In this document: in pieces, positions 47,248-64,000 of the stretch | Layout of the letters: the number at the start of each line of letters is the position of its first letter | How positions within the stretch are numbered: the first letter of the stretch is position 1 | Origin: Candidatus Neomarinimicrobiota bacterium | Lineage (GTDB): Bacteria; Fidelibacterota; Fidelibacteria; Fidelibacterales; Fidelibacteraceae | NCBI GenBank assembly: GCA_021157965.1 | Contig: JAGGVO010000047.1 | Location: 1 to 64,000, forward strand | Length of the DNA stretch: 64,000 bases | Direction of reading: 5' to 3' | Program-made: the position numbers and the translations under genes | Notes under the pieces: model-generated | What the model was told of the DNA's origin: nothing | What the model saw: only the letters and a program-made list of their open reading frames with translations | Databases searched by the model: none

Positions 47248-48105
47248 CTAATACCGCTTTAACATTTTCTTGTTCCAGGTTATTTGTTTTTTTGCATATT
47301 GCCGCGTCCGGATATTGATCCAGTGCTCGGCGTCTTCCAGGCTGTACTCTCCCCGGACATGGGCGATCATCTCTTTGTAACCAACGGTATTCAGGGCATT
47401 AAGTGAGGGACTGTATCCTTTGTCCAGCAAACAACGGACTTCCCTTTCAAAGCCCTTTTCAATCATACGCCGGGTCCTGATTTCAATACGACGCCATAAC
47501 TCTTTTCGGGGAATATCCGTGACAATAAAACGGTATTTCCAGGGGAAAGACTTTTCCTGGGACGCAAAATGTTCACTTGGTGTTTTCCCCGTTTGTTCAA
47601 TGATTTCCCAAGCCCTTGATATACGGCGGATATTGTTGGAATCTGTTATTCTTCCATATTCCGGGTCAAGTTCCTGCAACTGCTGCCACAGGATATGCCA
47701 ACCTTTTGTTTCACCTCTCTGGCGGATTAACTTGCGTATTTCAGAATCTGCTTTTTGCCCTTCAGGGATAAAACCCAGCATGGCCTGGATATACAAACCA
47801 CTACCGCCACAGACGATAACAGGACGCTTTTCTTTCATAAAAGTGTCAATCAATTTCCGGGCATCTCGTCCAAATTTACCGGCACTGTAAGTCTGGGTGG
47901 GATCCAGAAAATCCATCAGATAGTGAGGAATGCCTTTCTGCTCCTCCGGGGTGGGTTTTGCTGTGCCAATATCCATGTATTTGTAAACCTGCCGGCTGTC
48001 AGCAGATATAATCACCCCCTTCATTTCCAGGGCCATACGGACAGCCAATTCAGTTTTCCCCGAAGCAGTGGGACCTGTAACAATGACGAGTTCCGGTTGA
48101 TTCAT
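47248..48105 (-). CDS. miaA: tRNA dimethylallyltransferase
   Basis: Adds dimethylallyl to A37 of tRNAs reading U-starting codons, 285 residues. P-loop GPTASGKTE at the N-terminus, then ISADSRQVYKYMDIGTAKP and HYLMDFLDP, all diagnostic. It is slightly short at the C-terminus compared with about 310 but ends cleanly with RTRQYAKKQITWNKK. The ATG overlaps the stop of the CPBP gene (ATGA). mutL-miaA proximity is common in bacteria; here a large membrane gene lies between them. Confidence 0.96.
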   Translation of the reverse strand: MNQPELVIVTGPTASGKTELAVRMALEMKGVIISADSRQVYKYMDIGTAKPTPEEQKGIPHYLMDFLDPTQTYSAGKFGRDARKLIDTFMKEKRPVIVCGGSGLYIQAMLGFIPEGQKADSEIRKLIRQRGETKGWHILWQQLQELDPEYGRITDSNNIRRISRAWEIIEQTGKTPSEHFASQEKSFPWKYRFIVTDIPRKELWRRIEIRTRRMIEKGFEREVRCLLDKGYSPSLNALNTVGYKEMIAHVRGEYSLEDAEHWINIRTRQYAKKQITWNKKMLKRY

Positions 48106-51100
48106 ATTTTGTTCTGTCTCACTCTTAAATAGAGGCTGAAAAGAAAAGCAATGATTAAAAGTCCCGCCAGGACCAGAGATTCAGCTATTAAAACATCCGG
48201 ATATCCTTCATAGCGGATTTGGGTATATGCATAGGCAGCGAAAAAGGGGAAAATGGCAAAGGGTATCGCTGAGGGCATTGCCCGGAAAACAACCCGGTAT
48301 ACCCAGGCGGACCAGAGAAAAAGCACCAATCCGGATCCGAACCAGCTTATCTGTGTATCCATGAAAAAGAGAGCTGATAGACCGAATCCGGTGACGAGAA
48401 ATGCAAGATATCCATAAGCTCGCTTGCGGACTCCACCTCCTGTCAGATGATCTACGCCACGAAAGAGTATCATGAACAATATACAGATGATGGAAAAAAC
48501 CCATATACGCATAACAAGGAGATGCATCAGGGGGATTCGGGCATTGAGTGCTGAATAATCGGCCCAGACCGGATTATAAAAGGTCAGCCTGCTTTGAACC
48601 AGTACCAATATGCCCAATCCCCACAGACCGGCCGATAAACCTACCCACCGCGATGGCCGGTCCCGCATGTGGTCCGATTTGTAATCACGTATTAAAAATA
48701 AAAACAGGGGCAGACAAAACGCCATCACCAGACTGCGGATTACACCAAAGGCAATTGTACGGAATATCTGTCCTTGCAATGGCTCAGCCGGATTCAGGTT
48801 AAATCGGGTGACCGGCCATGTATTCCACATGTGAAAGAGACCTGCCAATAAAACAATACCCCCCAGGATAACCCAAACTTTTTTAGGAAACTGATCATGA
48901 GTTTCTTCCTGATAAGCCGAAACAGCCATTATAATAAGCAGGATGAACAGTAACACTACAGACAGGATTTGAATCAGACTCAGCAGGGTCTCCCGGTTCC
49001 GTTCTTCCCTGTCCCATTGTTCCGGAATATGAATGTAGCCCGGATTGTAGCGACTCACTTCATTTCCGGAAATCGTCACATTCAGGCGGCCTTCTCCTGC
49101 ATTGAGGGGATATCGCAGTGTATCGGCCCATGTAAAGGTCCAATCTGTACGATTCGGCATCTTTTGGGGGATGACGGATATTTTCTTCAGTAAAAGGGGA
49201 TCGAGACCCAAACGGGCACGGAGGAAGGCATCCGCTTTTTTTTCAGCGTCCTTTTCGGAGAGCGAGGGGGCGGGGCGGGCTTCCGGCAGGCGGTGGATGA
49301 AACGGCGGACTTCGCCATCCCCCACAACATGAATTTTAAACTCTTCAGCCCTTTCCGGCACTTCACCGGAGAAGCGTGCATAGCGGATAACCCAGCCGGG
49401 GCCGGAAAGGAATGTCCCCATGAGTTGCCGGTACCCCGTTTCACCACCGCTCTGCCGGGCGAAGCGGCCCTCCCGTTCCTGTGGTATCACTACCCGTTCA
49501 CTCACCATCCACATACTGTCTGCCAACTCAAAACCCCGCTCAGCAAGAGCCGCTTCGGAGGCCCTCCGGGCCTCAGCCCGCCCCACTCTTAATCCGGAAT
49601 CCTCATTTTCAAAGGACGTATAATGATACCAGATCACAAGGAAAAAAAGTCCGAAAAGAAATAAAAATCCCCTGGCCATGGGTGTAATCTGCCCGGTTTT
49701 CAAAGGCAATTCAGGAGGTTTTTCTTTTTTAAGGACTTTCACGACATGTTTGCCATTCAGATATGACGCTTTGATTTCTTGTTTTCCAAGTCTCAACCGG
49801 TGAAAAAAGATAATCCCCAGGGGAAAGAGGGTCAGCAGGATGACCAGGGTCCTGTGTACTCCGCTTCCGGGGGCGGAGGTATTGAAGAGTGGCAGGGAAA
49901 TCCACACCACATCATATACAAAATGCAAAATCACTCCGGGCAGGAGGCCATAATGAAGATAAAGGAATCCGAAGGCCAGAGACGGAATAAAGAGTTCCAC
50001 AACCCGGGCAAAGGCAGGCTGATTCGCATAGGAAGCATGAGCTGCCCCAAAAATCAAGGCCTGGAGCACAAGGGCTCCACCAATCCACCATTTTTTCCGG
50101 CCAAACCTTTCCCCAAGAAGGGCTGCTCCGGCGAGAGGTATGGCCCTGAAAAGGGCTTCCTCCCAAAATCCGGCCTGGAGGGAAATTGCCAAAGGATTCA
50201 ACGAGGGAATAATATGGGCCAGAATATTGGGATCATAGAGAGGACTGGCAGGTGACCACCAATTCCAGTAGCGGGTCGCAACAATATAGAAAATTGTGGA
50301 AAAACCAAAAAATATCCCCGTGGACAATAAACCGATCCAGGTCTGTTTATGAATTTCACCTGTCGCGGCAACAGGTCCGTTCCACACTTTCCAAAGGCAT
50401 ATTTTCCGGGGAAAAGCCATGCGGGTCAGACCTTCGGCTACTGCAAAGGTCAGGGTCATCACAAAAGCCAGAACCATTCCCAAGAGAATAAAGTCAAAAA
50501 TCTGTTGGAACACAAAATTGTTCTTTGACAGGGCTGTATCGTAATTCATCCAGATCAGAGGCCATTGATTAAAAAGGGCCGCAATCTGAAGGACGGCAAT
50601 CCCTCCGCCCCAATACAGAGCAGGTTTCCATTTAACGGCATGTCGTTTTAAAAGGGTGAATAATCCTGCCAATCCGCCCACACCCAGAAAGAGGAACATG
50701 GCCACCAATCCCACATTTGAAATGGTCCGGTTTGCTGCCCGCATATTTTCGTATCGCAATCGGAAGGCTTCCGGCACTTCGACATATCTCTTTATCTGAG
50801 TGACGGTATTCCCGGTGACTGTAAAACGAATCCGATACCGACCATCCTTTCCCAGGGTAATATCCGGTCGTTCATAGACAAAAACATGATCCATCCTCCC
50901 ACCGGGTTTTATTTCCGACGAGACTTCCACTTCATTATAAGCATGAAGTGGAACATGATAACTTTTTGATAGTCCGGCGACCAAAGACCGCGCTTCTGAT
51001 TCGGAAAGGATTTCTCCGGGATTATCCTCCGGGACCTTCTCATAGAATCCATAAACCTGTCCGCCGGGAGTCAGACGGACCAGAAATTCTTCATCCTGAC

Positions 51101-51434
51101 GTTCCCGGAAAAAGCGAACAAGCCAGGTATAGGGTTCATAAAGGGTATCTGCCAGCATTTTCCCGAAAGCTTCTTTTCCGCCGGCTTCCAATTCGGTATA
51201 GTACTGCACTTCCCGGTCCAGATCAAAGCGAACGGCAGTCTGCATGCCGCTTACAGAAAATCCACGGGATTCTGCGGTTTGCTTTGCAATTCTGACAGCT
51301 TCTTCCCTATCTGTATTCACCTGAACATTCACAACGGGAAAGGCATCGGTAAACTTCAACCACGCATAAGCACTTCCTAAAACAAAGAGGGTGATAAAAA
51401 GGGACCAAAAGAGAAGCGATTTATTTTTTATCAT
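48102..51434 (-). CDS. Giant CPBP-type intramembrane metalloprotease with duplicated soluble domain
   Basis: 1110 residues with a repeating plan: helix, soluble domain (about 40-225), several helices containing the CPBP (Abi/CAAX-like) active site, a second copy of the soluble domain (about 617-805), then a second helix bundle. Active-site residues are Glu425-Glu426 (FWEEALFR), His466 (FGAAHA) and His504 (LHFVYD). Both soluble domains start with an AxxxA...ERGF helix and read like PepSY-type repeats. The second helix bundle lacks EExxxR. The ATG at 51434 has AGGGAAA upstream, 11 bp after mutL. The function is unknown; known CPBP proteases cleave prenylated or signal-like peptides. Confidence 0.82.
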   Translation of the reverse strand: MIKNKSLLFWSLFITLFVLGSAYAWLKFTDAFPVVNVQVNTDREEAVRIAKQTAESRGFSVSGMQTAVRFDLDREVQYYTELEAGGKEAFGKMLADTLYEPYTWLVRFFRERQDEEFLVRLTPGGQVYGFYEKVPEDNPGEILSESEARSLVAGLSKSYHVPLHAYNEVEVSSEIKPGGRMDHVFVYERPDITLGKDGRYRIRFTVTGNTVTQIKRYVEVPEAFRLRYENMRAANRTISNVGLVAMFLFLGVGGLAGLFTLLKRHAVKWKPALYWGGGIAVLQIAALFNQWPLIWMNYDTALSKNNFVFQQIFDFILLGMVLAFVMTLTFAVAEGLTRMAFPRKICLWKVWNGPVAATGEIHKQTWIGLLSTGIFFGFSTIFYIVATRYWNWWSPASPLYDPNILAHIIPSLNPLAISLQAGFWEEALFRAIPLAGAALLGERFGRKKWWIGGALVLQALIFGAAHASYANQPAFARVVELFIPSLAFGFLYLHYGLLPGVILHFVYDVVWISLPLFNTSAPGSGVHRTLVILLTLFPLGIIFFHRLRLGKQEIKASYLNGKHVVKVLKKEKPPELPLKTGQITPMARGFLFLFGLFFLVIWYHYTSFENEDSGLRVGRAEARRASEAALAERGFELADSMWMVSERVVIPQEREGRFARQSGGETGYRQLMGTFLSGPGWVIRYARFSGEVPERAEEFKIHVVGDGEVRRFIHRLPEARPAPSLSEKDAEKKADAFLRARLGLDPLLLKKISVIPQKMPNRTDWTFTWADTLRYPLNAGEGRLNVTISGNEVSRYNPGYIHIPEQWDREERNRETLLSLIQILSVVLLFILLIIMAVSAYQEETHDQFPKKVWVILGGIVLLAGLFHMWNTWPVTRFNLNPAEPLQGQIFRTIAFGVIRSLVMAFCLPLFLFLIRDYKSDHMRDRPSRWVGLSAGLWGLGILVLVQSRLTFYNPVWADYSALNARIPLMHLLVMRIWVFSIICILFMILFRGVDHLTGGGVRKRAYGYLAFLVTGFGLSALFFMDTQISWFGSGLVLFLWSAWVYRVVFRAMPSAIPFAIFPFFAAYAYTQIRYEGYPDVLIAESLVLAGLLIIAFLFSLYLRVRQNKI

Positions 51435-51444
51435 GGGATTTCCC

Positions 51445-53274
51445 TTAATTTCTTTCGAACCGGCGGTCCAGTTCATTCAGCGTAAACCTGATAATAACCG
51501 GTTTGCCGGAAGGGGAAAGGTAAGGATTTTCCGTTTGAAACAGTTCGTCTGTAAGTCTTTGCATTTCAGCAGGTGTCAGCTCTTCACCCCTGCGGACAGC
51601 CGCTCTTTCGGCATAGGCCAGGGCAATTTTTTCACTGACTGGATTATGCAAACGCCTTGAGTTTTTATAATCATCCAGAATCTGCAAAACAACTTTTCCT
51701 TCCTCAAGCCACTGTAAATCTACCGGGATTGCTTCAATAAGGATTGAATGCCTGCCAAATTCCCGCATGGAAAAGCCCAGCTTTTCCAGAGACGGAACAA
51801 TCTCCAGGAGGATGGAATAATCGTCAGGTGAGAGTTCCAGGGTTATGGGAAAAAGAAGCTGCTGGCTGGCAGAAGACGAAGCCTGTTCCAAAGCTTTGAT
51901 GGCCCTGTCGTAGAGAATGCGGGTGTGGGCTGCCCGCTGATCAATCACAACCACGCCGCTGGAAATTTGTGTAAAGATATACCTTCCATGGGCCTGCCAG
52001 AAATTCCGTTCGGTCAGAAGCGGGTGTGTTTCGTCCGGGACACTCTCTGTAATGCTTTTTTCAAAACGGCGAATCCGTTCATCCAGCGAGAGATTTGCAG
52101 CGGAAAATGAGGGTTTTTCAATCCCCTGAAACGGTTTATCTCTTTCAACCTTTTCGGAAAACGAAAGCTGTTCCCCTTCGAGCCTGGGAGGAGCCGTTAC
52201 ATGTACCGGACGTTCTCCTGAAAAAAAATCCCGATCATTCAATTTTCCGGATTGACTGTTTTCCATTGATTCTCCTGTCCAATCCCGGATAGCCTGTTCA
52301 CAACTCCGCCGGACAAATTGATATATCTGCCACTCACTTCTGAATTTCACCTCTGTTTTTGCAGGATGGACATTGACATCCACTTCTGCAGACGGCAGCG
52401 TAAGAAAGAGAACAAAAAAGGGAAATTCACCTTTATCCAGATGTCCACCAAAAGCTGAATAAACAGCACTGTTCATCATGCGATCGGTTACAAGGCGTCC
52501 ATTTACATAAAGATACTGTTCACCACTTTTCCGCCGGACCAGTTCCCGGGTGCCGATAAACCCTTTAAGAACCAGGGGCGGTTCTTCCTCGTAAACGGTG
52601 ATACAATTTTCCGTCAAACGTTTTGAAAAAATCCGGTTTAACCGTGAGGATAAGTCCTCCGGCGGCAGGATGTAGACATCCTTTTCATTGGCTGTCAGAT
52701 GAAAACGTATGTGGGGTCTGGCCAGGGCAAATCGCCGGACGATTTCCACAATATGGCGATATTCCGAATTTGCCGATTTAAGAAATTTTTTTCTTGCCGG
52801 TATATTAAAAAAAAGATTTCGTACAGTTATGGATGTCCCACGTTTCATGGCGGCGCCTTCCAGCCGGTCAACTTTTCCGCCATTGATCAAAAGCCTGAAT
52901 CCTTCACCCGTTTCGTTATTACAGGTTCTGGCGTCAACTCGTGATACGGAAGCTATACTGGCAAGAGCCTCTCCCCTGAACCCTAATGTTTTAATTGCAG
53001 TAAGATCTTCAATATCAAAGAGTTTACTTGTAGCATGTTGTTCAAAGGCCAGCAGGAGATCATCCCGCTCCATTCCCTCTCCATTATCGGCTACACGGAT
53101 CAGCTCACGTCCTCCATCTTCAATCTGAATTACAATTTCCGTTGCTTTTGCATCCAGACTGTTTTCAATTAACTCCTTAACGACAGAAGCAGGTCTTTGA
53201 ACCACCTCCCCGGCAGCAATGCGATTACTTAACGATTCCGGCATGATTTGAATGACAGGCACAGGATTCTCCAT
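51445..53274 (-). CDS. mutL: DNA mismatch repair protein MutL, endonuclease motifs degenerate
   Basis: 609 residues. The GHKL ATPase is intact: ENSLDAKAT, DNGEGM, GFRGEALASI, and the later VNGRLV and NVHPAKTEV. The C-terminal dimerisation domain is present, but the nuclease motif expected as DQHAxxExxxxE reads DQRAAHTRILYD (445-456), and the final C-P-H-G-R-P metal motif reads SPSGKP (587-592). The cysteine and acidic ligands are therefore lost, so this MutL probably lacks nicking activity. First gene of the operon with the CPBP protein and miaA. Confidence 0.95.
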   Translation of the reverse strand: MENPVPVIQIMPESLSNRIAAGEVVQRPASVVKELIENSLDAKATEIVIQIEDGGRELIRVADNGEGMERDDLLLAFEQHATSKLFDIEDLTAIKTLGFRGEALASIASVSRVDARTCNNETGEGFRLLINGGKVDRLEGAAMKRGTSITVRNLFFNIPARKKFLKSANSEYRHIVEIVRRFALARPHIRFHLTANEKDVYILPPEDLSSRLNRIFSKRLTENCITVYEEEPPLVLKGFIGTRELVRRKSGEQYLYVNGRLVTDRMMNSAVYSAFGGHLDKGEFPFFVLFLTLPSAEVDVNVHPAKTEVKFRSEWQIYQFVRRSCEQAIRDWTGESMENSQSGKLNDRDFFSGERPVHVTAPPRLEGEQLSFSEKVERDKPFQGIEKPSFSAANLSLDERIRRFEKSITESVPDETHPLLTERNFWQAHGRYIFTQISSGVVVIDQRAAHTRILYDRAIKALEQASSSASQQLLFPITLELSPDDYSILLEIVPSLEKLGFSMREFGRHSILIEAIPVDLQWLEEGKVVLQILDDYKNSRRLHNPVSEKIALAYAERAAVRRGEELTPAEMQRLTDELFQTENPYLSPSGKPVIIRFTLNELDRRFERN

Positions 53275-54185: not shown

Positions 54186-54216
54186 AAAGGGGCGAACTAA
54201 GTTCGCCCCTTTGTGT
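54186..54216. terminator. Bidirectional terminator between queH and the surface operon
   Basis: A perfect 12-bp stem, AAAGGGGCGAAC (54186-54197) with GTTCGCCCCTTT (54201-54212), loop TAA, and T-rich flanks on both strands. Confidence 0.92.
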
Positions 54217-54259: not shown

Positions 54260-55915
54260 TTATTTCAGCAGTGTCATATTCCGAACTTTTACGACATTGC
54301 CTGCTTTCATCCGATAAATGTAAGATCCGGATGCTACTTTTCTGCCGTTCATATCGGTTCCATCCCAAACAAAGGAATGTTTTCCTGCATTCAGATGTGA
54401 ATTAACCAGTACTTTCACTTCTTTTCCGGTAATGTCATAGATAGCAAGTTTCACGTGTTCAGCTGTTGGAATATTAATGGATAACGTGGTGGACGGGTTG
54501 AAGGGGTTGGGGAAGTTTTGTTCAAGTGTATAGGCAAAAGGCAGTAAGGGATTGTTTTGATCGATACTGTTTGCAATTTGCGGATCCATGACAATAATGG
54601 GATAAGAGATATGATCGACAAAGGGCGCCACACCTTCATCATAGGGCACACTTGATGTATAGACAACTTCAAGGTATTCATCATCGTCCATATTGGCCAC
54701 ATCAATCACATCCCAAAAGCCGGCGTCACCATAGGCTGTATCGACAAATGAAAGTTCCCAATTATCGGGGGATGTAATATCTCCGCCTTTATGAGAGAGA
54801 AAGAAAATCATGGCATTGGGCGGACCGGAATATCTGGAACCGAACACAAAGTCCAGATTTCCATCTGCATCAATATCACCGTGTGAACCACCACACAGAC
54901 GTCCACCGTTAAGATAAGGTTCTGTACCTATATCAAAAAGTGCAGTCCTTTTCAATGTATCTGCTTCTTCCTGAAGAAGCCAGAGGTGACGGGTATTATC
55001 TCCGTAATAATACTCACCGGTAATGGCTTCTTTTGTCCCATCCTTATCGATATCTGCCGTTTGTACAGCCCGGAAGGAAATACCACCCGGCAAGGGAGAT
55101 AATTCGGAATATTCCCAGTCACTACCATTCCAGGTTGTCTTACTGATCACCACTTCGTCAAACGTATAGAAGGATGGTTCAATCACAGCCACATCCCATT
55201 TATTATCTCCACCGTAGGTGAAATCATGAGGTGTCGCTTCGATTTCCCAAGTTTCTGAGCCATCTCCCGCATCCGGAACATCACTGACTGTGATAACACC
55301 AAAATTGTATCCACTGTCGTTTCCTTTACGGTCGGCAAAGATGATCCGCTTGACACCATCTCCTTTGATATCTGCAATGTCCATATCAAAAATGCGGAGG
55401 TTCACATTATCCTGATCCACGATAGTCCAGGCTGCATTCGGGGCATAACCGCCTGCTCCGTCGTCAACACCGAACAGATCCGAATCACCCCCTTGATGTT
55501 CGTAAATCAGAATTCTGTATGGATTCGTTTCTGTCGAGAAATTATTGACAACTGACCAGATGAGTTCCATTTTACCATCACCATCTAAATCATCCAACAG
55601 AAGCGGTGGCCAGGTATTCTGGGCATCTACAGGAGCCACTGCACTCCAGACGACTTCCCAGTCTGTTCCATTATTTTCCAGTTTGTAAATACGTGGTACC
55701 AGCTCATCTGCTGTGTCATTCCAGTTATCATTCACGAGGTAAATTTCTCGTTTACCATCTCCATCAACATCCTCTCCGGCAACCATATCCCCTGTACCAC
55801 CATTGTTCAATGCCGAATCGGGCATTGAAATTTCCTGCACACGGGAAAAATCAATTGCGAAAAGGGAGGTTGTCACGAAAAGAGCCAGGATCACTACGCT
55901 AACAATTCGTTTCAT
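54260..55915 (-). CDS. Secreted FG-GAP/VCBS-like propeller protein with type IX-like sorting domain
   Basis: 551 residues with signal peptide MKRIVSVVILALFVTTSLFA. At least six short Ca2+-loop repeats of the D-x-D-x-D-G type are visible (DVDGDGKREI, DLDGDGKMEL, DIKGDGVKRI, DIDKDGTKEA, DIDADGNLDF, NMDDDEYLEV), typical of an FG-GAP beta-propeller. The C-terminal 85 residues start with LEQNFPNPFNPSTTLSI, contain the FlgD-like IYDITGKEVK, and end YRMKAGNVVKVRNMTLLK: the sorting domain of type IX-like secretion. Last gene of the four-gene surface operon, 48 bp after the PorV-like gene. Probably exposed on the cell surface; ligand unknown. Confidence 0.88.
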   Translation of the reverse strand: MKRIVSVVILALFVTTSLFAIDFSRVQEISMPDSALNNGGTGDMVAGEDVDGDGKREIYLVNDNWNDTADELVPRIYKLENNGTDWEVVWSAVAPVDAQNTWPPLLLDDLDGDGKMELIWSVVNNFSTETNPYRILIYEHQGGDSDLFGVDDGAGGYAPNAAWTIVDQDNVNLRIFDMDIADIKGDGVKRIIFADRKGNDSGYNFGVITVSDVPDAGDGSETWEIEATPHDFTYGGDNKWDVAVIEPSFYTFDEVVISKTTWNGSDWEYSELSPLPGGISFRAVQTADIDKDGTKEAITGEYYYGDNTRHLWLLQEEADTLKRTALFDIGTEPYLNGGRLCGGSHGDIDADGNLDFVFGSRYSGPPNAMIFFLSHKGGDITSPDNWELSFVDTAYGDAGFWDVIDVANMDDDEYLEVVYTSSVPYDEGVAPFVDHISYPIIVMDPQIANSIDQNNPLLPFAYTLEQNFPNPFNPSTTLSINIPTAEHVKLAIYDITGKEVKVLVNSHLNAGKHSFVWDGTDMNGRKVASGSYIYRMKAGNVVKVRNMTLLK

Positions 55916-55963
55916 TTGTTTCTCCTTTTCTCGTTTTCTTTTTCATCTTTAATATAACCTTTT

Positions 55964-56959
55964 TTAAAAGGATATACCCAGCGAAAACCGGTGACTGCTG
56001 GTTAGCAGTCCCAAATCAGAATATGCATAATCAATACAGAGGGTTGTCCAATCCATCAACGCCATCCGGAGTCCGGCACCCAGGGTGAGTCCGCCTTCAT
56101 CTGCAGCAAATTTATAACCGCCCCGGAGGGACACCATTTCCCGAAAAGCATATTCAAACCCCAGATTGTACTGTTCCAGGTTGTTGTTAGGATGAATCAT
56201 ATCCCCTGCAACCGTCAATCTGTGTTCTGTTTTATCCATCAGATTGGCACTTGTGCCAAAACGAAACATCACCGGAAGAGAGTATTTCTCAAATTCTTTG
56301 GGAACCTGGGGAACGGGCAGATAAGACTGCTGATCGGAATAATCGATGTAATCCCCGCTGAAACGGATTTCCGGGCCGAAGTGCATAATCGACATTCCCA
56401 ATTTCAGTCCGTGAAAACCGGTCCGGTAAATGGATCCCAAATCCAGGGACCAGGCACTGTAACCATGGTCCAGATACTCTTCACGAACCAGTTTCCCGGT
56501 TAATCCTACAGAAACGTGATCTGTGAGATAACGGGCATAGGAGAGTCCCAGCGTATAGTTGGACAATGAGAAAAATTCTCCCGTTCCGTTGGGGGCATCC
56601 AAAGAGGTGATTTCCATATCATCTGTCATCAGATAGATGGAGCTGACTGCGAACGTTCCCACATTTCCAAGGCTCATGGACAGAGCCGCTCCTCCGAAAG
56701 CCATATCCGCCGGCCATTGGGTTTGGGTAACGAAGAGTTGATTTTTTCCTCCGTCCACCAGTCCGGCAGGATTCCAGAAAACGGCTTCGGCCCCGGAAGC
56801 ACCGGTTGTATAGGCTTCACCCATACCGGCTCCCTTTGCACCCATGCCGATTTCCATAAATTGTCCCACGACAGTTCCCACAGGTGCGAAGGTTTCACCC
56901 GGAGTCACCGTTACCGTGAACAAAATCAGCAGGATAAGCATCAACGATTTATTTTGCAT
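55964..56959 (-). CDS. PorV/PorQ family outer-membrane protein
   Basis: 331-residue FadL-like barrel of the PorV/PorQ (UPF0164) family. After the signal peptide comes GQFMEIGMGAKGAGMGEAYTTGASGAEAVFWNPAGL, the hallmark N-terminal segment. The protein ends in a beta strand (SHRFSLGISF). In type IX secretion PorV shuttles substrates from the translocon to the attachment complex. Its location between two genes for sorted proteins fits that role. AGAGGA lies before the ATG. Confidence 0.9.
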   Translation of the reverse strand: MQNKSLMLILLILFTVTVTPGETFAPVGTVVGQFMEIGMGAKGAGMGEAYTTGASGAEAVFWNPAGLVDGGKNQLFVTQTQWPADMAFGGAALSMSLGNVGTFAVSSIYLMTDDMEITSLDAPNGTGEFFSLSNYTLGLSYARYLTDHVSVGLTGKLVREEYLDHGYSAWSLDLGSIYRTGFHGLKLGMSIMHFGPEIRFSGDYIDYSDQQSYLPVPQVPKEFEKYSLPVMFRFGTSANLMDKTEHRLTVAGDMIHPNNNLEQYNLGFEYAFREMVSLRGGYKFAADEGGLTLGAGLRMALMDWTTLCIDYAYSDLGLLTSSHRFSLGISF

Positions 56960-56980
56960 AATTCTATCCTCTTTTTCGCA

Positions 56981-58987
56981 TTACCGGACAACGACAAATT
57001 TACCGACTTTTGTCCCCAGGGATGGTGAATCAACTACATACATATAGATACCCGGGGCTGCTTCCTGATCATTCCGGGTTAACAGATCCCATTCGGCAAC
57101 AGAATCCCTGGCATCGGGGTACCCTTCGCCGACACGGACAGTTTCACCGGCATGAATTTCATCTACAAAATCCCCATCTATGGTAAAGATTTTAATAGTA
57201 GCATCGGCAGGCAGATTGATGAACTGCAATCGGTGTTCCCAGGGATTGGCACTACTGGGAATCCGGTTATTCCATATCGCACTGCCCACATAGGGATTGG
57301 GAACAACTTTAACATCATCCAGATTTTCCGTCGCAACCGGTGTGGCAGGCGAAACAGGATAAAAAGCATTTGGATCCCGCATGGATGTCGCCTGTACTCC
57401 AATGGGCGGATCCGTGATTTCAATACTGACCGATTGGACCGTATAGTAATAATCAAACCCGAATTTTACATCGCTGTCGAAGATTTGATACACGGATGCT
57501 TTTTTCCCCAGCGGCGGCGGCCAGTTGTCGTTTACCATAAAGGTATCAATGGTGACCCAGAGCAGGTCGCCGGTTGCCGTTTTTTCGCTGGCTTTATAGG
57601 CAATATATCCGGCAAAATTTGGATGAGATTCGGGAGAATCATCCCATATAAGATTCACACCCTGGAACCCGCCGGCTTCATCCACCACTTCCTGCACCTC
57701 CACATTGGGTGCCGGAGGAATCAATTCATCAATAGGAATATCATAATCATGATCGACCATATATTGTGCCATCTTCATGATATTGACAAATTCCACCAGG
57801 CTGTACACCCCTCCGCTATCCGGATCACTGCCCACAGCCAGGGCCGTTGTGACTTTCAACGTGTCTCCAGCTTTAAATACATCCATGGGCCCAAAGGTCA
57901 GGATACCCCGGTAATCAAGGGGATAAGGGAGATTGTTACGGGGATCAATAAGCAGGTTCTCAAAAGAAGGATCCGAAATCATTCTGTCCCATGTTTCCTG
58001 GTCAGTACCGGGATCGTTATAAATGTGACAGGTATGAAAAGAATGAGGTTTCAGCTTGGGCTCTGTTTTTAAAATTTTCAAACCCAGAACTCCGGGTGTC
58101 TGCAGCGTTCCATCCTCCGCCGGATTACCAAAGTCGTCCGGATGGCCGTCAAAGGCATCATATTCCGGATTATCCCCGTCGAACATCATGATCATGGAGC
58201 TGTCAATATCATCCATGCTTAAACCGTGATCCCGTCCCTTCATCTGGGGGAAGGCTTCGATCCAATCCCAATCCACACCATTACTTACAACATGATCATC
58301 CTGATTGGAAAAGCGGTATTCAGCACCCCAGTGGGGAAGCTTGCTCACATCTCCGTCAAAACGGATGGTAAAATAGAAGTCATCCAGATCCCTGTCTGTA
58401 TCGGGATATCCGTCTCCATCCGTATCAATCCCCACATTAATAATATCATATTCATAGATGATAAAATCGGAAGCAAAATCAGCACTCCAGGCATAAGTCC
58501 GCTCAATCACTTTCACACCAAGGGGAAAGTGGTTGCTTGCCAGGGGCGCATTGACATCATAATACTCGGTATAGGATTCCTGTTCAGCCTTTTTGGCATC
58601 TTCACCGGTATACATGGTGACAGGAGCGAGGGGAGAAAACTCCTGATCATCTCCCTGTGTGGAATGAAATTCTCCGTCAACAAAAGCAGACAACCAGATG
58701 GTGCCCCTGTACAGATAGGAATTCCCTGTTCCACCGGGATAATCACAGGATGGTGTCCTGTCGGTATAGGCATCATCACCCATATAGCTAAAGTTAGTGA
58801 TCCGGTTCCACAAGACACCGATTTTGTGCCAGTCCCAATCCGATTCCACGATGGGACTTTCAGCAGCATAGGCATTTTTCCGCATAAGAAAGTGATTTTT
58901 TTCGGCATCTGCGCCATAAAGAACCGGACTCATGAGCAATATCAGCACCAGTACCGTTGATAATATTTTATATTGTTTCATGATCAT
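56981..58987 (-). CDS. Large secreted protein with type IX-like C-terminal sorting domain
   Basis: 668 residues, unrecognised N-terminal two thirds. A signal peptide (residues 1-26) is followed by acidic, Trp/Tyr-rich sequence with several D-x-D-x-D-G-like turns (GIDTDGDGYPDTDRDLDD). A fibronectin-type-III-like stretch (about 450-545, VNLIWDDSPE...FAGYIAYKAS) and a C-terminal domain with VVPNPYVGSA and TIKIFTIDGDFVDEI, ending APGIYMYVVDSPSLGTKVGKFVVVR, form the sorting module. The ATG at 58987 has GGGAGG at six bases. It lies 28 bp after the TonB receptor, the position of SusD-type partners, but no SusD features are seen. Confidence 0.82.
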   Translation of the reverse strand: MIMKQYKILSTVLVLILLMSPVLYGADAEKNHFLMRKNAYAAESPIVESDWDWHKIGVLWNRITNFSYMGDDAYTDRTPSCDYPGGTGNSYLYRGTIWLSAFVDGEFHSTQGDDQEFSPLAPVTMYTGEDAKKAEQESYTEYYDVNAPLASNHFPLGVKVIERTYAWSADFASDFIIYEYDIINVGIDTDGDGYPDTDRDLDDFYFTIRFDGDVSKLPHWGAEYRFSNQDDHVVSNGVDWDWIEAFPQMKGRDHGLSMDDIDSSMIMMFDGDNPEYDAFDGHPDDFGNPAEDGTLQTPGVLGLKILKTEPKLKPHSFHTCHIYNDPGTDQETWDRMISDPSFENLLIDPRNNLPYPLDYRGILTFGPMDVFKAGDTLKVTTALAVGSDPDSGGVYSLVEFVNIMKMAQYMVDHDYDIPIDELIPPAPNVEVQEVVDEAGGFQGVNLIWDDSPESHPNFAGYIAYKASEKTATGDLLWVTIDTFMVNDNWPPPLGKKASVYQIFDSDVKFGFDYYYTVQSVSIEITDPPIGVQATSMRDPNAFYPVSPATPVATENLDDVKVVPNPYVGSAIWNNRIPSSANPWEHRLQFINLPADATIKIFTIDGDFVDEIHAGETVRVGEGYPDARDSVAEWDLLTRNDQEAAPGIYMYVVDSPSLGTKVGKFVVVR

Positions 58988-59015
58988 TCATGACCTCCCG
59001 TTCACTGAGGGGTTA

Positions 59016-61901
59016 TCAAAACTGGACGGACATTCCAAAACGGAATTGCCGTTCATTACTATAGACCTGCGGACTCCGGGTCATTTCGCCGGAGAGCTCA
59101 TTATACCGGATGATTGACGGATCATCATATAGCTCATAATACCTGGCGTTGCCTATCCAGTCCACATTTTGCCTGTTCATCAGGTTGAACACATCCATAA
59201 AGACCTGTAAATCGGCAAAACCGACATCGAATGTCCGGTTGATGCGCAAATCCAGGTTTGCAGTCCAGGGCATTCTGGCATCGTTGGGAACACTGGAGTT
59301 ATAGGATGTATATGGCAGACCGCTGCCGTATTTAAAGAGCAGGTTTGCCCGCCAGTTTCTGAGAAGGGCATTAAATTTTTTCGAAGACGCCAACGTCAGT
59401 GTCGCATTTACGGTGTGTGTCTGATCATACCCGAGGATATTCATTCGCTTAGCACTGTCGTACTCACCGGCACCTTCCGTATAGGATGTACTCCGTCCCT
59501 TCGCGACAGAAAAGGTGTAGTTGGCACTAAAACCCCAACCATCATTCAGTCTTTTCTGAAGAGCAAATTCAAGTCCCTTGATGTTTGCATAATCGGCATT
59601 CTGAAAAATCCGCACTTCAGTCCCCTGCAATTTCCGCAGAACGAACTTGTAATTATCAATCAGATTGGTCACGTCCTTCACATAACCGGTCACTGAGGCT
59701 TTCAAATCCGGTGTAAACAGGTGTTCAAGGCCGATATCATAAGCGACTGTTTTCTCGGGTTTCAAATTGGGATTTCCCACCCAGTTACCTGCTTTTGTCA
59801 AGCCGGTATACGTGTGATTTCTGTAGAGAAAGTAGGCGTCAGGACGCTGGAAATAGTGGCCGTATGTAAAATGCAGAACCGTCCTGTCCGTGATGGGGTG
59901 AGATATACCCAGTCTGGGACTCAGCTGATGATGGGGATCGGGAGATACGGGATCATTAAGGACGGGCGTGCCAAGTGAATCCAATGTTGAGAAAGGTTCT
60001 TCGAAATTCGAGGGATAATAAATCGGGTCACCCCATCCATTGGGATTGAAATAATCATAGCGCAGACCGATAAGGGCGATCAATCCTTCAAATTCCATCT
60101 TATCCTGGGTATAGATTCCCAGATCGATGGTATTTTCATTCCACTTATCTTTCCGGGGAAACGAGGGACCCAGGGTCCAACTGATATTTTCGACATCGGA
60201 CTCATGGAGATTGAGTTCAAATCCGGTCTTAACCAGATGGTTGCGGGTTACCTGGCTTACAAGGTCCCCTTTGAGAGTCCGGGAAACCGATTCCTGGTGT
60301 CTGTATCCCGGATCATCACCGCGAATCCACCAGTAATTATCTTCCCTTTCCCGGTAGATGGGATGAGGGCCTTCTTTACTGACATCCCATTCCAGATCCT
60401 CTTCCGTATCACCGTCTCCATCCCGGTCATCTACGTCCGGTGTGGCATAATGATATTGGGAAAAGAAATTCTGAAAACGGAGTTCATAATATGTTTTAGA
60501 ACTCAGAGTATGGGTCCATACGAGATACATGTTGTTGCTCTCTTTGGCATAATTCCACAGGTAGTCCTGCATGCCGCCCACATAGTATTCCTGAATTTTA
60601 TCATACACCCTCCCATTGACGGAATCAAGACTGACAGGCGTGATTTTCCCTTGTTCGTCGCTATAGTCGTTGGGATTGTTCACATAATTATAGATTACCA
60701 ACAGGCTGTCGTCTGCTTCAGTATATTCATACTTTTGAATAGGATAATCACCTTCCGGTCCATATTTGGAAGCAGGAAGATAGAACTGATCCCATTCTGA
60801 GGAAGAATAAAGACCGCCAATTGCCAGTTTTGTATTTTTAGTGGGTTTGAATGTGAGTTTCCCCTGAAAATTATTGCTGTAGGAATTTTGGTTTATCATA
60901 TAGCTCTGGCTTCGGTCAGTTACGTCGGCTGAGACAAAAAAGGTTGCGGGACCTTCAAATATTTTTTCCGTAAAGGGAATGGGACCACTCAGGCTGAACT
61001 GATACAGTTGTTCCAGCTTATGCTGGTATTTGGTTCCATAGAGGAGAGAATCCACATGGACCGTATCTACGCCACCACCGGTCAGTGAATCATAACGGGT
61101 ATGAACATCATAGGTTCCCAGCCATGTCTCCCGTTCACCCATCAGGGCTTCATTGACGGCCGTACCAAGACTTGTAGTCGTCACTTTAAAAAGGCCTTTG
61201 AGTTTTGAGCTCCCTTCTTTCATTGCCAGATTGAGAACACCGGACTGTACATTACCGTATTCGGCACTGAAACCACCAAGAGTTACTTCCAGTTCCTGAA
61301 TACTCTGTTCAGGGATATTCGCCGTAAAACCACCAAGATCACCGGAGTATTTACCGGCAGGATCCCGTACGGGGATTCCGTCAACCAGGACCAGCACTTC
61401 ACCGCTTCGGCCTCCCCGGAAATTGTTACCGACCACACCGGCCTGATTACGGGCAATATCACGGAAATTTTCAATGGGTTGCATGGTGATATCTTCACTG
61501 GATACCGAGTGGCGGGACGTGAATTCATCTTTCTTCAACAGGGGACGCTCCGCAACAACGATAACCTCACCTGTTCTCAGCGCTTCGGTCGTCATTTGAA
61601 AATCAATGGTTGTTGTAAGTCCCATGCTCACCTGGATATCCTGAACAGTTACAGGTGCATATCCGATCATGGACGAGCGAATTGTATAGTCGCCCGGCGG
61701 AACGTTCAGAATTACATAAAATCCGTTCTCGTCTGTTGCTGCCCCCATGGTGGTACCTTCCAGAAAGACATTCACCCCGGCCAGGGGCTGCCCCGTACCG
61801 GCATCTGTGACTGTCCCGACAATTTTTCCGGCAGTACTTGCCCATGCCATGGTTCCGGTAACACAGATTAAAACGACGATTGCCATAATAAACTTTCGCA
61901 T
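59016..61901 (-). CDS. TonB-dependent receptor with carboxypeptidase-regulatory-like N-terminal domain
   Basis: 961-residue outer-membrane receptor. After the signal peptide comes an Ig-like CarboxypepD_reg domain (about 23-110: GKIVGTVTDAGTGQPLAGVNVFLEGT), then the plug (FRDIARNQAGVVGNNFRGGRSGEVLVLVDGIPVRDP and SAEYGNVQSGVLNL). A long 22-strand-type barrel follows, ending in Phe (RFGMSVQF). The ATG at 61901 has GGAGG at six bases. First gene of the four-gene operon. The substrate could be a polymer fragment, peptide or siderophore; no Fur box is visible upstream. Confidence 0.92.
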   Translation of the reverse strand: MRKFIMAIVVLICVTGTMAWASTAGKIVGTVTDAGTGQPLAGVNVFLEGTTMGAATDENGFYVILNVPPGDYTIRSSMIGYAPVTVQDIQVSMGLTTTIDFQMTTEALRTGEVIVVAERPLLKKDEFTSRHSVSSEDITMQPIENFRDIARNQAGVVGNNFRGGRSGEVLVLVDGIPVRDPAGKYSGDLGGFTANIPEQSIQELEVTLGGFSAEYGNVQSGVLNLAMKEGSSKLKGLFKVTTTSLGTAVNEALMGERETWLGTYDVHTRYDSLTGGGVDTVHVDSLLYGTKYQHKLEQLYQFSLSGPIPFTEKIFEGPATFFVSADVTDRSQSYMINQNSYSNNFQGKLTFKPTKNTKLAIGGLYSSSEWDQFYLPASKYGPEGDYPIQKYEYTEADDSLLVIYNYVNNPNDYSDEQGKITPVSLDSVNGRVYDKIQEYYVGGMQDYLWNYAKESNNMYLVWTHTLSSKTYYELRFQNFFSQYHYATPDVDDRDGDGDTEEDLEWDVSKEGPHPIYREREDNYWWIRGDDPGYRHQESVSRTLKGDLVSQVTRNHLVKTGFELNLHESDVENISWTLGPSFPRKDKWNENTIDLGIYTQDKMEFEGLIALIGLRYDYFNPNGWGDPIYYPSNFEEPFSTLDSLGTPVLNDPVSPDPHHQLSPRLGISHPITDRTVLHFTYGHYFQRPDAYFLYRNHTYTGLTKAGNWVGNPNLKPEKTVAYDIGLEHLFTPDLKASVTGYVKDVTNLIDNYKFVLRKLQGTEVRIFQNADYANIKGLEFALQKRLNDGWGFSANYTFSVAKGRSTSYTEGAGEYDSAKRMNILGYDQTHTVNATLTLASSKKFNALLRNWRANLLFKYGSGLPYTSYNSSVPNDARMPWTANLDLRINRTFDVGFADLQVFMDVFNLMNRQNVDWIGNARYYELYDDPSIIRYNELSGEMTRSPQVYSNERQFRFGMSVQF

Positions 61902-62328: not shown

Positions 62329-63564
62329 ATGGCAGAATTACGAAAAGACCGTATTGAAGCAATTGATGTTTTTCGTGGATTGACTATTTTTCTCATGTTC
62401 ATTGTCATCGCCATCGGGGCGGGAGGATACCGGGATCTGCCCCAAACCGGATCCTGGTTCGGAAGCCTTCCCGTTTCCACCTGGAATCATGCAGATGTTG
62501 CCTGGGAGCGTTTTGTTGAAGCCAAAACGTCTGAAAGCTTTTCGGAAGAAGAAATCAACGCCATGCCCGAAGCGGCCTTGAAAAATGTTGGACTAACTCT
62601 GACGGATTTGGTAGCTCCTTTCTTCATTTTCATAGTGGGATTATGCCTGCCCCTGAGCAGGGCAAAACACGGCCGGGAATGGTGGAATCACGTTTTGAGT
62701 CGCACGATTAAATTGATTCTGTTAGGTGTTTTATACATTAGCCTGATTCTGGGACTCTCCTGGTGGTGGGGTATCCTTCAGGCAATTGGAGTTTCTTATT
62801 TCATGGCTGCCGCAAGTCTTAAGCTGAACCGCAAAGGACGATGGATAACAGTATTTGGTGTATTGGCTTTTCACATGATGATGAGTCATTTCACGGATTG
62901 GTGGCTGAATTTCGGGAACACAAGCGAACCATTTTTCCGCATCAGTACCCTATCCGGCAATATGGCAAAACCCCTGCGGGTTCACTGCCTTCCATGGGTT
63001 TCTATTTCCTATGGTGCCTTGACCATTATCGGTGTAATGCTGGGAGAAGCTGTAGCAAGCAAAAATCCCAAACGTATTTTAGCGGATTCTTTCAGGCTGG
63101 GCGCCCTTTTTATGGCTATAGGCTATGCGATTCATAAAACAGGACTTTTAACCGGAGTCACATCCCTGAGCTTTAACAAGCCCGATGTGACAGCATCTTA
63201 TGCCCTTTTTACCGCGGGTCTGGCCTGTGTTGTTTTCGGCATCCTCTACTGGATCGTGGATATTAAAAAATATAAAGGATGGATTTTTCCCTTTAAACAG
63301 CTGGGTATAAATGCTCTTCTGGCTTATTTCATGCAGATTTTTATGAGGATTTTCTTCCGGGCCCTGCACCTGGAAGCTTTCTTTGCAGGCGAACCCAATG
63401 ATCAGCTGCAACAATGGGCCGGACTCTGGTCCTGGAGCGGATGGCAACACTTCTGGCTGGATAAAACAGGCTATAACGGCCTTTTCTGGGCCTTTCTGTG
63501 GAGTGTCTGCCTTTGGCTGTGTGTTTATGCCTTTAACAAGCGAAAAATTTACTGGAAATTGTAA
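62329..63564 (+). CDS. Heparan-alpha-glucosaminide N-acetyltransferase-like membrane acyltransferase (DUF5009)
   Basis: 411-residue multi-helix membrane protein. RIEAIDVFRGLTIFLMF at the N-terminus and TLTDLVAPFFIFIVGLCLPLS are typical of the HGSNAT/DUF5009/NagX family, and the final helices (GINALLAYFMQIFMRI) also fit. Family members use acetyl-CoA on one side of the membrane to acetylate sugars on the other. GGAG is seven bases before the ATG. No sugar-degradation genes are adjacent, so the substrate is unknown. Confidence 0.85.
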   Translation: MAELRKDRIEAIDVFRGLTIFLMFIVIAIGAGGYRDLPQTGSWFGSLPVSTWNHADVAWERFVEAKTSESFSEEEINAMPEAALKNVGLTLTDLVAPFFIFIVGLCLPLSRAKHGREWWNHVLSRTIKLILLGVLYISLILGLSWWWGILQAIGVSYFMAAASLKLNRKGRWITVFGVLAFHMMMSHFTDWWLNFGNTSEPFFRISTLSGNMAKPLRVHCLPWVSISYGALTIIGVMLGEAVASKNPKRILADSFRLGALFMAIGYAIHKTGLLTGVTSLSFNKPDVTASYALFTAGLACVVFGILYWIVDIKKYKGWIFPFKQLGINALLAYFMQIFMRIFFRALHLEAFFAGEPNDQLQQWAGLWSWSGWQHFWLDKTGYNGLFWAFLWSVCLWLCVYAFNKRKIYWKL

Positions 63565-63670: not shown

Positions 63671-64000
63671 ATGAGAGCTTCTGAAACCATGGAAGGAACA
63701 CTTGATCTGGCCCGTTGCGGCACACTGTTGGAGATCCTGGGCATTTATGCTGAAGGGGAAATCCGGCGGCGCCTGCTGGATATGGGTCTGGTAAAAGGGG
63801 CCCGCATTCGTGTCATTCGGAAAGCGCCTTTGGGAGATCCGGTGGAAATTGATATGAACGGTTTTTTTCTGACATTGCGCCTTGAGGAAGCCAAAACCGT
63901 TAAAGTCCGCCTCCTGGAAGCCGGTCCCTTTCATCGTCATGGAGGTCCACACCACGGCCGAGGTCGCGGTATGGGTCGTGGCAGACACCGATGGTTTCAT
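63671..64000 (+). CDS. feoA: FeoA-domain ferrous iron transport protein (3'-truncated by window edge)
   Basis: 110 codons are visible and the frame is still open at the last base. The SH3-like FeoA domain spans about residues 16-83: EIRRRLLDMGLVKGARIRVIRKAPLGDPVEIDMNGFFLTLRLEEAKTVKV. It is followed by a His/Gly/Arg-rich segment (HRHGGPHHGRGRGMGRGRHR) not found in ordinary 75-80 residue FeoA. The protein may be a FeoA with a metal-binding tail or the front of a FeoA-FeoB fusion. A Fur-type operator lies just upstream. ATG at 63671; weak AGGGA before it. Confidence 0.9.
   Translation, partial: MRASETMEGTLDLARCGTLLEILGIYAEGEIRRRLLDMGLVKGARIRVIRKAPLGDPVEIDMNGFFLTLRLEEAKTVKVRLLEAGPFHRHGGPHHGRGRGMGRGRHRWFH

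What the first reader, a model, noticed from the sequence alone, without database searches (positions are those of the whole stretch)
54260..61901. Self-contained surface operon: TonB receptor, two sorted proteins and PorV
Both secreted proteins end in type IX-like sorting domains, and the operon carries its own PorV shuttle. The order receptor then large secreted protein imitates SusC/SusD, but the second protein has no SusD features and has a fibronectin-like and Ca-loop-rich design. This may be a SusD-independent uptake system.
Basis: partly seen in the sequence, partly recalled or inferred. Interest (0 to 1): 0.55.

Follow-up and report, generated by a model that had tools for sequence, protein, structure and literature searches.

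The report
TonB receptor with barrel-tethered surface partner
In a little-studied bacterial phylum, genes for an energised outer-membrane importer are repeatedly packaged with a secreted surface protein and a dedicated barrel protein that probably holds it at the cell surface, which looks like another way of building the capped nutrient importers known from gut Bacteroides.

Summary
The operon is real: TonB receptor, 668-aa secreted protein X, PorV/PorQ-family barrel, FG-GAP protein with type A sorting tail, in a Neomarinimicrobiota MAG. Receptors and barrels of this cassette each form one clade. The cassette recurs: 56 of 67 PorV-family genes in six genomes have a receptor upstream, and 36 of 46 strong matches of X's CTD subtype in four genomes end within 300 bp of a barrel gene. 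The CTD models closest to PorZ's; X's body models as the super-beta-sandwich of GH94/GH116 enzymes without their catalytic domain. SprA and PorU are present, PorL/PorM undetected, SusD undetected here. Best reading: a T9SS-exported, barrel-tethered capture protein serving a TonB importer; it works like SusCD or BtuBG but is no member. Physical complex, uptake and substrate are unproven.

The parts
59016..61901 (-). TonB-dependent receptor (CarboxypepD_reg domain, plug, barrel), first gene of the operon; start ATG read at 61901 with GGAGGA before it
   Evidence: PF00593, PF07715, PF13715 over cut-off; TIGR04056 SusC/RagA only 80.7 of 368 bits; start read from sequence
56981..58987 (-). X668: secreted partner; hydrophobic N-terminal signal without Cys, super-beta-sandwich domain (about 46-417), FN3-like domain (about 425-545), PorZ-like C-terminal domain (about 554-668)
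   Evidence: no Pfam family over cut-off; AlphaFold model pLDDT 77; VIA-align Z 16.9; alignment of 20 orthologues
56984..57328 (-). C-terminal domain (CTD) of X668, subtype shared by cassette partners
   Evidence: model pLDDT 79; PorZ residues 687-776, Z 10.8, rmsd 2.8, 86 aligned, 26% identity; 36 of 46 strong matches in 4 genomes end within 300 bp before a PorV-family gene
55964..56959 (-). dedicated PorV/PorQ-family outer-membrane barrel (331 aa)
   Evidence: NF033709 205 bits (cut-off 90); PorQ 72, PorV 53 bits, both below equivalog cut-offs; tree
54260..55915 (-). FG-GAP-repeat secreted protein with type A T9SS sorting tail
   Evidence: PF13517, PF01839, TIGR04183 31.8 bits; a gene with such a tail follows the barrel in 28 of 32 loci
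54186..54212 (.). terminator-like hairpin readable on both strands, after the operon
   Evidence: 12-bp stem; such sites are no more common here than in shuffles (7 found, 8.4 expected), so only its position speaks for it

Best explanation
A self-contained outer-membrane uptake cassette. X is exported by Sec and then the T9SS translocon SprA (encoded elsewhere); the cassette's own PorV/PorQ-family barrel takes it from the translocon by its CTD and keeps holding it at the surface, as PorQ holds PorZ; the super-beta-sandwich of X captures a ligand, probably a glycan or glycoconjugate, over the neighbouring TonB receptor, which imports it with TonB energy. The FG-GAP protein is a second surface factor using the ordinary type A route. 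Shown here: gene order, inheritance as a unit, a CTD subtype tied to barrel genes, folds by prediction, SprA, PorU and TonB in the genome, no SusD match. Inferred: export of X, tethering without cleavage, contact with the receptor, uptake, ligand class.
For: X directly follows TonB in 46 of 48 and precedes the barrel in 42 of 44 testable loci (one more barrel by tblastn). Receptors (40 rows of 75) and barrels (38 rows of 72) of this cassette are each one side of a branch. 56 of 67 PorV-family genes in six genomes have a plug domain <12 kb upstream on the same strand; random placement in the single-contig genome G004 gives 0.6 of 13 against 12 observed. CTD subtype: 36 of 46 strong matches within 300 bp of a PorV-family gene, 1 of 25 weaker ones. 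The CTD models closest to that of PorZ, which PorU does not cleave (PMC8545088) and whose protein PorQ appears to anchor (PMC5562754); 8 of 9 cassette barrels tested score higher for PorQ than for PorV, the lone barrel the reverse. Super-beta-sandwich Z 16.9. Receptor and barrel distances correlate over 12 cassettes (rho 0.71), CTD and barrel 0.40. TonB_C twice in the genome; no SusD match.
Against: No physical contact was tested. PorU is present, so X could be cleaved and linked to LPS. PorL and PorM were not found, so how this T9SS is powered is unclear. A shared fold does not show glycan binding, and Foldseek's own TM-scores for the body are low (0.27 at best rank). In four sister cassettes (C41, C42, C16, C23) the partner shares only the CTD with X, so the bodies differ. 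The CTD profile was seeded from cassette members, which favours cassette-linked CTDs. In G028 three further PorV-family genes besides the lone one have no receptor upstream.
Confidence: 0.5

Rival explanations
1. The cassette barrel is only a cargo-specific shuttle. It pulls X out of SprA and delivers it to PorU, which cuts the CTD; X ends LPS-linked or released, and works near the receptor as an ordinary surface or secreted binding protein or enzyme.
For: PorU over cut-off, 694 bits. PorV is a shuttle for type A CTDs (PMC5562754 passages) and PorP/SprF-like barrels are dedicated shuttles of type B CTDs (PMC12618676 introduction and discussion). A near-C-terminal Lys that contacts PorV in solved complexes (PMC10994853 passages) has a likely counterpart in K663, invariant in 20 of 20 orthologues; the match of position is my inference.
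Against: The CTD is nearest to that of PorZ, reported as not cleaved; barrels nearer PorQ.
Confidence: 0.25
2. Operon of convenience: receptor, X and barrel are co-regulated surface proteins that do not form one machine; X could be an adhesin or coat protein.
For: No interaction data; FN3 and FG-GAP domains are common in adhesins (recalled). Correlated divergence follows from duplication of the operon as a block as well as from contact.
Against: Inheritance as a unit across three phyla and reuse of the same order with unrelated partner bodies are more than co-regulation usually gives.
Confidence: 0.17
3. The TonB receptor is part of export rather than import: TonB energy helps drive or release X in a T9SS without the PorL/PorM motor.
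For: PorL and PorM models found nothing in a 96% complete genome while SprA and PorU are present; a receptor accompanies most dedicated barrels.
Against: Those models may miss distant motors; CTD matches on contigs C9, C10, C14, C20, C24, C33, C34, C52, C55 and C59 lie on contigs with no plug match, so much CTD cargo has no receptor beside it; the receptor family is known for import.
Confidence: 0.05

Closest known systems
SusC/SusD (RagA/RagB) importers of Bacteroidota
   Same: TonB-dependent barrel gene followed by a gene for a surface partner; several paralogous sets per genome
   Different: partner is not SusD and not a lipoprotein; a dedicated PorV/PorQ-family barrel and a T9SS-type CTD stand where the lipid anchor would be; receptor is far below the SusC model's cut-off
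BtuB-BtuG vitamin B12 importer of Bacteroides (PMC10404256, passages read)
   Same: TonB receptor with a surface lid that is not SusD
   Different: BtuG is lipid-anchored; X has a predicted super-beta-sandwich body and a T9SS-type CTD; contact of X with its receptor is not shown
PorQ-PorZ and PorV-PorU pairs of P. gingivalis (PMC5562754, PMC8545088, passages read)
   Same: PorV/PorQ-family barrel with a surface protein; PorZ's uncleaved CTD is the best structural match of X's CTD
   Different: there the pairs serve the T9SS attachment complex; here such pairs recur in TonB receptor operons with other surface domains
Type B CTD / PorP-SprF dedicated shuttle pairs of F. johnsoniae (PMC12618676, PMC9143113)
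   Same: barrel gene directly downstream of its cargo gene, many cognate pairs per genome, barrel linked to final location
   Different: here the barrel is of the PorV/PorQ family and the CTD is PorZ-like, not type B; a TonB receptor is part of the operon

Membership tests
SusCD importer | SusD/RagB partner (PF07980) | tested here: not met
   no PF07980 match in the own genome at E<=0.01 and no SusD family for X at E<=1; PF14322, PF12741, PF12771 not searched genome-wide
SusCD importer | SusC/RagA-type receptor (TIGR04056) | tested here: not met
   80.7 bits, cut-off 368
SusCD importer | partner is a surface lipoprotein | tested here: not met
   window X has no Cys in its first 45 residues, nor have 17 of the 19 other rows of A1; the other two (L069, L073) have a Cys there, at residues 18 and 17
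TonB-dependent receptor | plug and barrel domains | tested here: met
   PF07715 and PF00593 over cut-off; two TonB_C matches in the genome
PorV/PorQ family | NF033709 over cut-off | tested here: met
   205 bits, cut-off 90
PorV orthologue (T9SS shuttle) | NF033710 equivalog over cut-off | tested here: not met
   53 bits, cut-off 250
PorQ orthologue | NF033711 equivalog over cut-off | tested here: not met
   72 bits, cut-off 220
T9SS type A cargo (551-aa protein) | TIGR04183 over cut-off | tested here: met
   31.8 bits, cut-off 23; PF18962 just under cut-off, 26.5 of 27
T9SS type A cargo (668-aa protein) | TIGR04183 over cut-off | tested here: not met
   not listed for window X at E<=1; 10 of 20 rows of A1 match at E<=1, best 0.00056
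T9SS CTD fold (668-aa protein) | seven-stranded beta-sandwich CTD | tested here: met
   predicted model with seven strands; PorZ C-terminal domain Z 10.8, NucA CTD 6.8, RemZ CTD 6.5, PorU C-terminus 6.4; only the PorZ match stands above the Ig-like background
Type B CTD with PorP/SprF barrel | type B tail model and PorP/SprF-family barrel | tested here: not met
   neither appears among the hits at E<=1 of X and barrel
T9SS-bearing genome | translocon SprA/Sov and sortase PorU | tested here: met
   SprA 784.6 bits over its pieces, PorU 693.9 bits
T9SS-bearing genome | motor PorL/PorM | tested here: inconclusive
   no match to TIGR03517 at E<=0.1 or TIGR03513 at E<=1; no control genome passed either cut-off, so sensitivity is unknown; PorK and PorN not tested
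GH94/GH116-type super-beta-sandwich | same fold | tested here: met
   Z 16.9, rmsd 3.6, 265 aligned, on a predicted model
GH94/GH116 enzymes | helical (alpha/alpha)6 catalytic domain after the sandwich | tested here: not met
   after residue 422 the model shows strands with one short helix, no helical barrel; that these enzymes have such a domain is recalled

The most novel reading that the evidence does not exclude
In Fidelibacterota, KSB1 and Calditrichota a third kind of capped TonB importer exists: its extracellular capture protein is exported by the T9SS and tethered by a dedicated PorQ-like barrel instead of a lipid, and diversification of receptor-partner-barrel cassettes takes the place of SusCD diversification in lineages without SusD. 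The PorV/PorQ family would then have expanded here as membrane anchors for importers, not only as a secretion shuttle.
Probability: 0.4. Interest if true: 0.8.

Novelty: new variant of a known kind. Interest (0 to 1): 0.6.

Why it matters
One recent paper calls the T9SS exclusive to Bacteroidota (PMC12618676, introduction), though another abstract gives it to the Fibrobacteres-Bacteroidetes-Chlorobi superphylum (PMC11205867, listing); lipoprotein-capped TonB transporters are said to seem exclusive to Bacteroidetes (PMC10404256). Recurrent receptor-partner-barrel cassettes in uncultured phyla would give the T9SS a direct role in building nutrient importers, explain why these genomes hold 5 to 13 PorV-family genes, name a CTD subtype that Pfam and NCBIfam miss at their cut-offs, and give cassette-by-cassette predictions testable by complex prediction and pull-down.

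Tried and rejected
A SusD hidden among small neighbours of TonB receptors: Pfam scan of 10 such proteins of the own genome (six from barrel cassettes, four beside other receptors) gave PPIC/SurA-like isomerases, propeller or NHL repeats, an Ig domain, domains of unknown function or nothing, no SusD. A named family for the partner bodies: of nine sister partners in the own genome, eight had no Pfam match better than E 0.1, one had P-domain and weak CBM_4_9 matches. A solved sequence relative of X: one chance-level match at E 1. Substrate clues from neighbours: the acyltransferase and FeoA-like gene are beside the operon only in the same-genus loci, so not used. PorZ as fold of the whole of X: Foldseek rank 9, TM 0.13, rejected. 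Fidelibacter muropeptide scavenging as the substrate: 0 occurrences of TonB in that paper, left as speculation.

Results against the reading: L145 has neither TonB nor barrel adjacent (remote Fermentibacteria match); L144 has at least two genes between TonB and X; L106's barrel was missed by my ORF caller and found by tblastn. Four of 32 loci (L111, L117, L143, L144) have no same-strand CTD gene right after the barrel. In one search I entered PorV-family rows of 90 bits or more on their own; rows below that, including two that pass only with neighbouring matches, were dropped. The own-genome C16 receptor is cut by the contig end and counts as a miss there. One barrel (L082:7107) scores higher for PorV than PorQ, and the C4 barrel was not scored. 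The tree took rows over 120 bits and 280-480 aa, without duplicates; 'lone' rows were defined by length over 395 aa; one row (L090) was left out and L114 relabelled by hand because its X was hidden by an antisense ORF. In one search receptors over 780 aa were used, with L106 and L114 relabelled; FastTree warned of long branches. One search mixed orthologous cassettes; one search repeats it with 12 of one lineage. PF07980 matched 11 of 61 genomes of the phylum, so the phylum is not SusD-free. The weak CTDs are only those at E<=1e-6. The RgpB and Kgp matches lie at residues 581-681, which I recall as the Ig-like domain before the CTD, so they do not support a CTD.

Literature: nine searches. None of the listed titles and abstract starts describes a TonB-CTD-PorV operon; several lists were cut (for example 20 of 905, 15 of 59). 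'Marinimicrobia' with 'PorV' gave zero papers. The library is open-access PMC only. Seen: PMC12618676 abstract, introduction, discussion; PMC9143113 abstract, discussion; passages of PMC5562754, PMC10994853, PMC8545088, PMC10404256, PMC12578637, PMC5317091; others in listings only.

Full report
What is there. The window lies in contig C47 of a 2.3 Mb, 96% complete genome. Its nearest named relatives in the collection are Candidatus Marinimicrobia/Neomarinimicrobiota MAGs (81-94% identity of X), so I place it in that phylum (Fidelibacterota). Four genes run on the - strand with gaps of 28, 21 and 48 nt: TonB receptor 59016-61901, X668 56981-58987, PorV/PorQ-family barrel 55964-56959, FG-GAP protein 54260-55915, with a hairpin after them at 54186-54212. 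Families are as. X668 passes no Pfam or NCBIfam model.

Conservation. Of 61 genomes searched with X668, 24 including its own gave a match with E below 1e-100. I fetched 20 of the other 23: TonB lay just upstream in all 20, and the barrel just downstream in the 18 whose contig went on. In the named collection 49 loci were found: Neomarinimicrobiota/Marinimicrobia, five KSB1, three Calditrichota or Caldithrix, one titled Caldisericaceae, some titled only 'bacterium', and three remote ones in Eisenbacteria and Fermentibacteria. By script: TonB directly upstream 46 of 48, barrel directly downstream 42 of 44, a type A CTD gene next after the barrel 28 of 32; one missed barrel (L106) was found by tblastn. 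Leaving out the three remote loci, these figures are 45 of 45 and 40 of 41. Many of these loci are the same genomes as, so the two counts are not independent.

A unit of inheritance. In a tree of 72 PorV-family proteins the 38 barrels of this cassette, from the three phyla, are one side of a branch (SH-aLRT 97), and six long lone barrels (407-460 aa) another (99). In a tree of 75 receptors the 40 of this cassette are one side of a branch (100, FastTree, with long-branch warnings). So receptor and barrel stay with X rather than being swapped among the paralogues of a genome.

A recurring cassette. In the own genome TonB-partner-barrel order is seen in nine operons (window, C41, C16 with its receptor cut by the contig end, C42, two in C57, C23, C4, C36), some with a lipoprotein before the barrel, plus a variant in C61 with TonB next to the barrel and the partner further upstream (C4 barrel). 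In six genomes 56 of 67 PorV-family genes of 90 bits or more have a TonB plug domain less than 12 kb upstream on the same strand, mostly at 4.3-6.8 kb, the length of a receptor plus a partner; random placement in the single-contig genome G004 gives a mean of 0.6 of 13, maximum 4 in 5000, against 12 observed. In each of the six genomes one long lone gene is among the exceptions; G028 has three more. The lone gene of the own genome (451 aa) comes closest to the PorV equivalog (210 of 250 bits), and in G004 lies beside a protein related to a T9SS-dependent M6-type family (256 bits, below its cut-off of 600). I read it as the housekeeping PorV.

The sorting domain. Profile comparison of A1 with sister partners: C57a, C61 and G004_2101 match over nearly all of X, C57b from about column 150, C36, C4 and G004_1642 over the second half, while C41, C42, both C16 partners and C23 share only the C-terminal domain. 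A profile of that domain (A2) gave 71 matches at E<=1e-6 in four genomes, 46 of 62 bits or more and 25 of 42 or less. Of the 46, 36 end within 300 bp before a PorV-family gene, 39 within 2 kb and 44 within 10 kb; of the 25, 1, 1 and 3. The profile was seeded from cassette members, so the link is partly selected for; the gap in scores and the link in cassettes of other families are not. Known models do not pass: Pfam CHU_C best E 0.0016 and Por_Secre_tail 0.037 over 20 members; NCBIfam PorZ weakly in 19 of 20 rows of A1, best 5.6e-5. The predicted fold (pLDDT 79, seven strands) matches the C-terminal domain of PorZ best, Z 10.8; the next matches, Z 7.3 and below, include Ig-like domains of many kinds, among them the NucA CTD bound to SprA-PorV (6.8) and the RemZ CTD (6.5).

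The partner body. In the X668 model (pLDDT 77, pTM 0.70, loops at 72-89, 217-227 and 565-582 poor) residues 46-417 match the super-beta-sandwich of GH94, GH116, cyclic glucan synthase, GH15- and GH65-type and related enzymes; the 50 listed rows have Z 13.2-16.9, rmsd 3.3-4.5 and 220-275 residues aligned, above the 7-8 that the tool gives as typical best Z without a clear match. Foldseek's own TM-scores are low (0.27 at rank 1). The helical catalytic domain of those enzymes is missing; an FN3-like domain and the CTD follow. A glycan ligand is a guess from fold.

The machinery. SprA 784.6 bits, PorU 693.9 bits, TonB_C twice. PorM and PorL models find nothing; weak evidence, since no control genome passed their cut-offs. 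SusD (PF07980) has no match in this genome or in the other 19 genomes of its order that were searched, some of them incomplete, and matches in 11 of 61 over the phylum.

Mechanism. In P. gingivalis PorU and PorZ appear to be held at the surface by PorV and PorQ (PMC5562754), and the PorZ CTD is not cleaved by PorU (PMC8545088). In F. johnsoniae barrels encoded directly downstream of type B cargo genes act as cognate shuttles that also set the final location (PMC12618676). Here a PorZ-like CTD is encoded just upstream of a barrel that is nearer PorQ than PorV in 8 of 9 cassettes tested. The most economical reading is that each cassette barrel collects and keeps its own partner beside its own receptor. 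Receptor and barrel distances correlate over 12 cassettes of one lineage (Spearman 0.71, permutation p 0.0003), CTD and barrel 0.40 (p 0.004), CTD and receptor 0.30 (p 0.019); duplication as a block explains this as well as contact does.

Membership. It works like SusCD or BtuBG but is not a member of SusCD: partner, anchor and receptor subfamily fail the tests (membership table). It joins a PorV/PorQ-family barrel, a T9SS-type CTD partner and a TonB receptor, a combination described in none of the titles and abstract starts that my searches listed.

Noticed in passing
L077:6596-7990 and L079:9045-10406 (own genome, sister cassettes): Lipoprotein-like genes with SurA-like (below cut-off) or PPIC isomerase domains lie between partner and barrel or just after the barrel; a PPI is part of the known SprA-PorV translocon (title of 8gl8).
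   Followed up: partly
own genome G000: No match to the T9SS motor models GldL and GldM in a genome with SprA, PorU and some 35 further matches to the PorU model, most of them to its CTD end: diverged motor or another power source.
   Followed up: partly
window 62329-63564 and 63671-64000: A divergent HGSNAT/NagX-like membrane acyltransferase and a FeoA-like gene (recalled likeness) flank the operon and are kept beside it in four same-genus loci (L057, L058, L059, L068); I did not see them by eye beside the other loci.
   Followed up: partly
window 48102-51476: 1124-aa membrane protein with a CPBP-like EExxxR stretch and seemingly two similar halves (by eye), no Pfam match at 1e-5, beside MutL; a likely counterpart lies beside MutL in L057 and L059.
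   Followed up: no
L144 and L143: Remote X relatives (23-28% identity) in Eisenbacteria (L143) and Fermentibacteria (L144) MAGs also lie in TonB...X-barrel order, in L144 with at least two genes between TonB and X.
   Followed up: partly
L060:10452-13157, L064:6188-8869, L067:165-2510, L074:1727-3433: The gene after the barrel varies: FG-GAP alone, FG-GAP plus Sortilin/BNR-type repeats, or the latter alone; all four have type A-like tail matches, two of them just under the Pfam cut-off of the best tail model.
   Followed up: no
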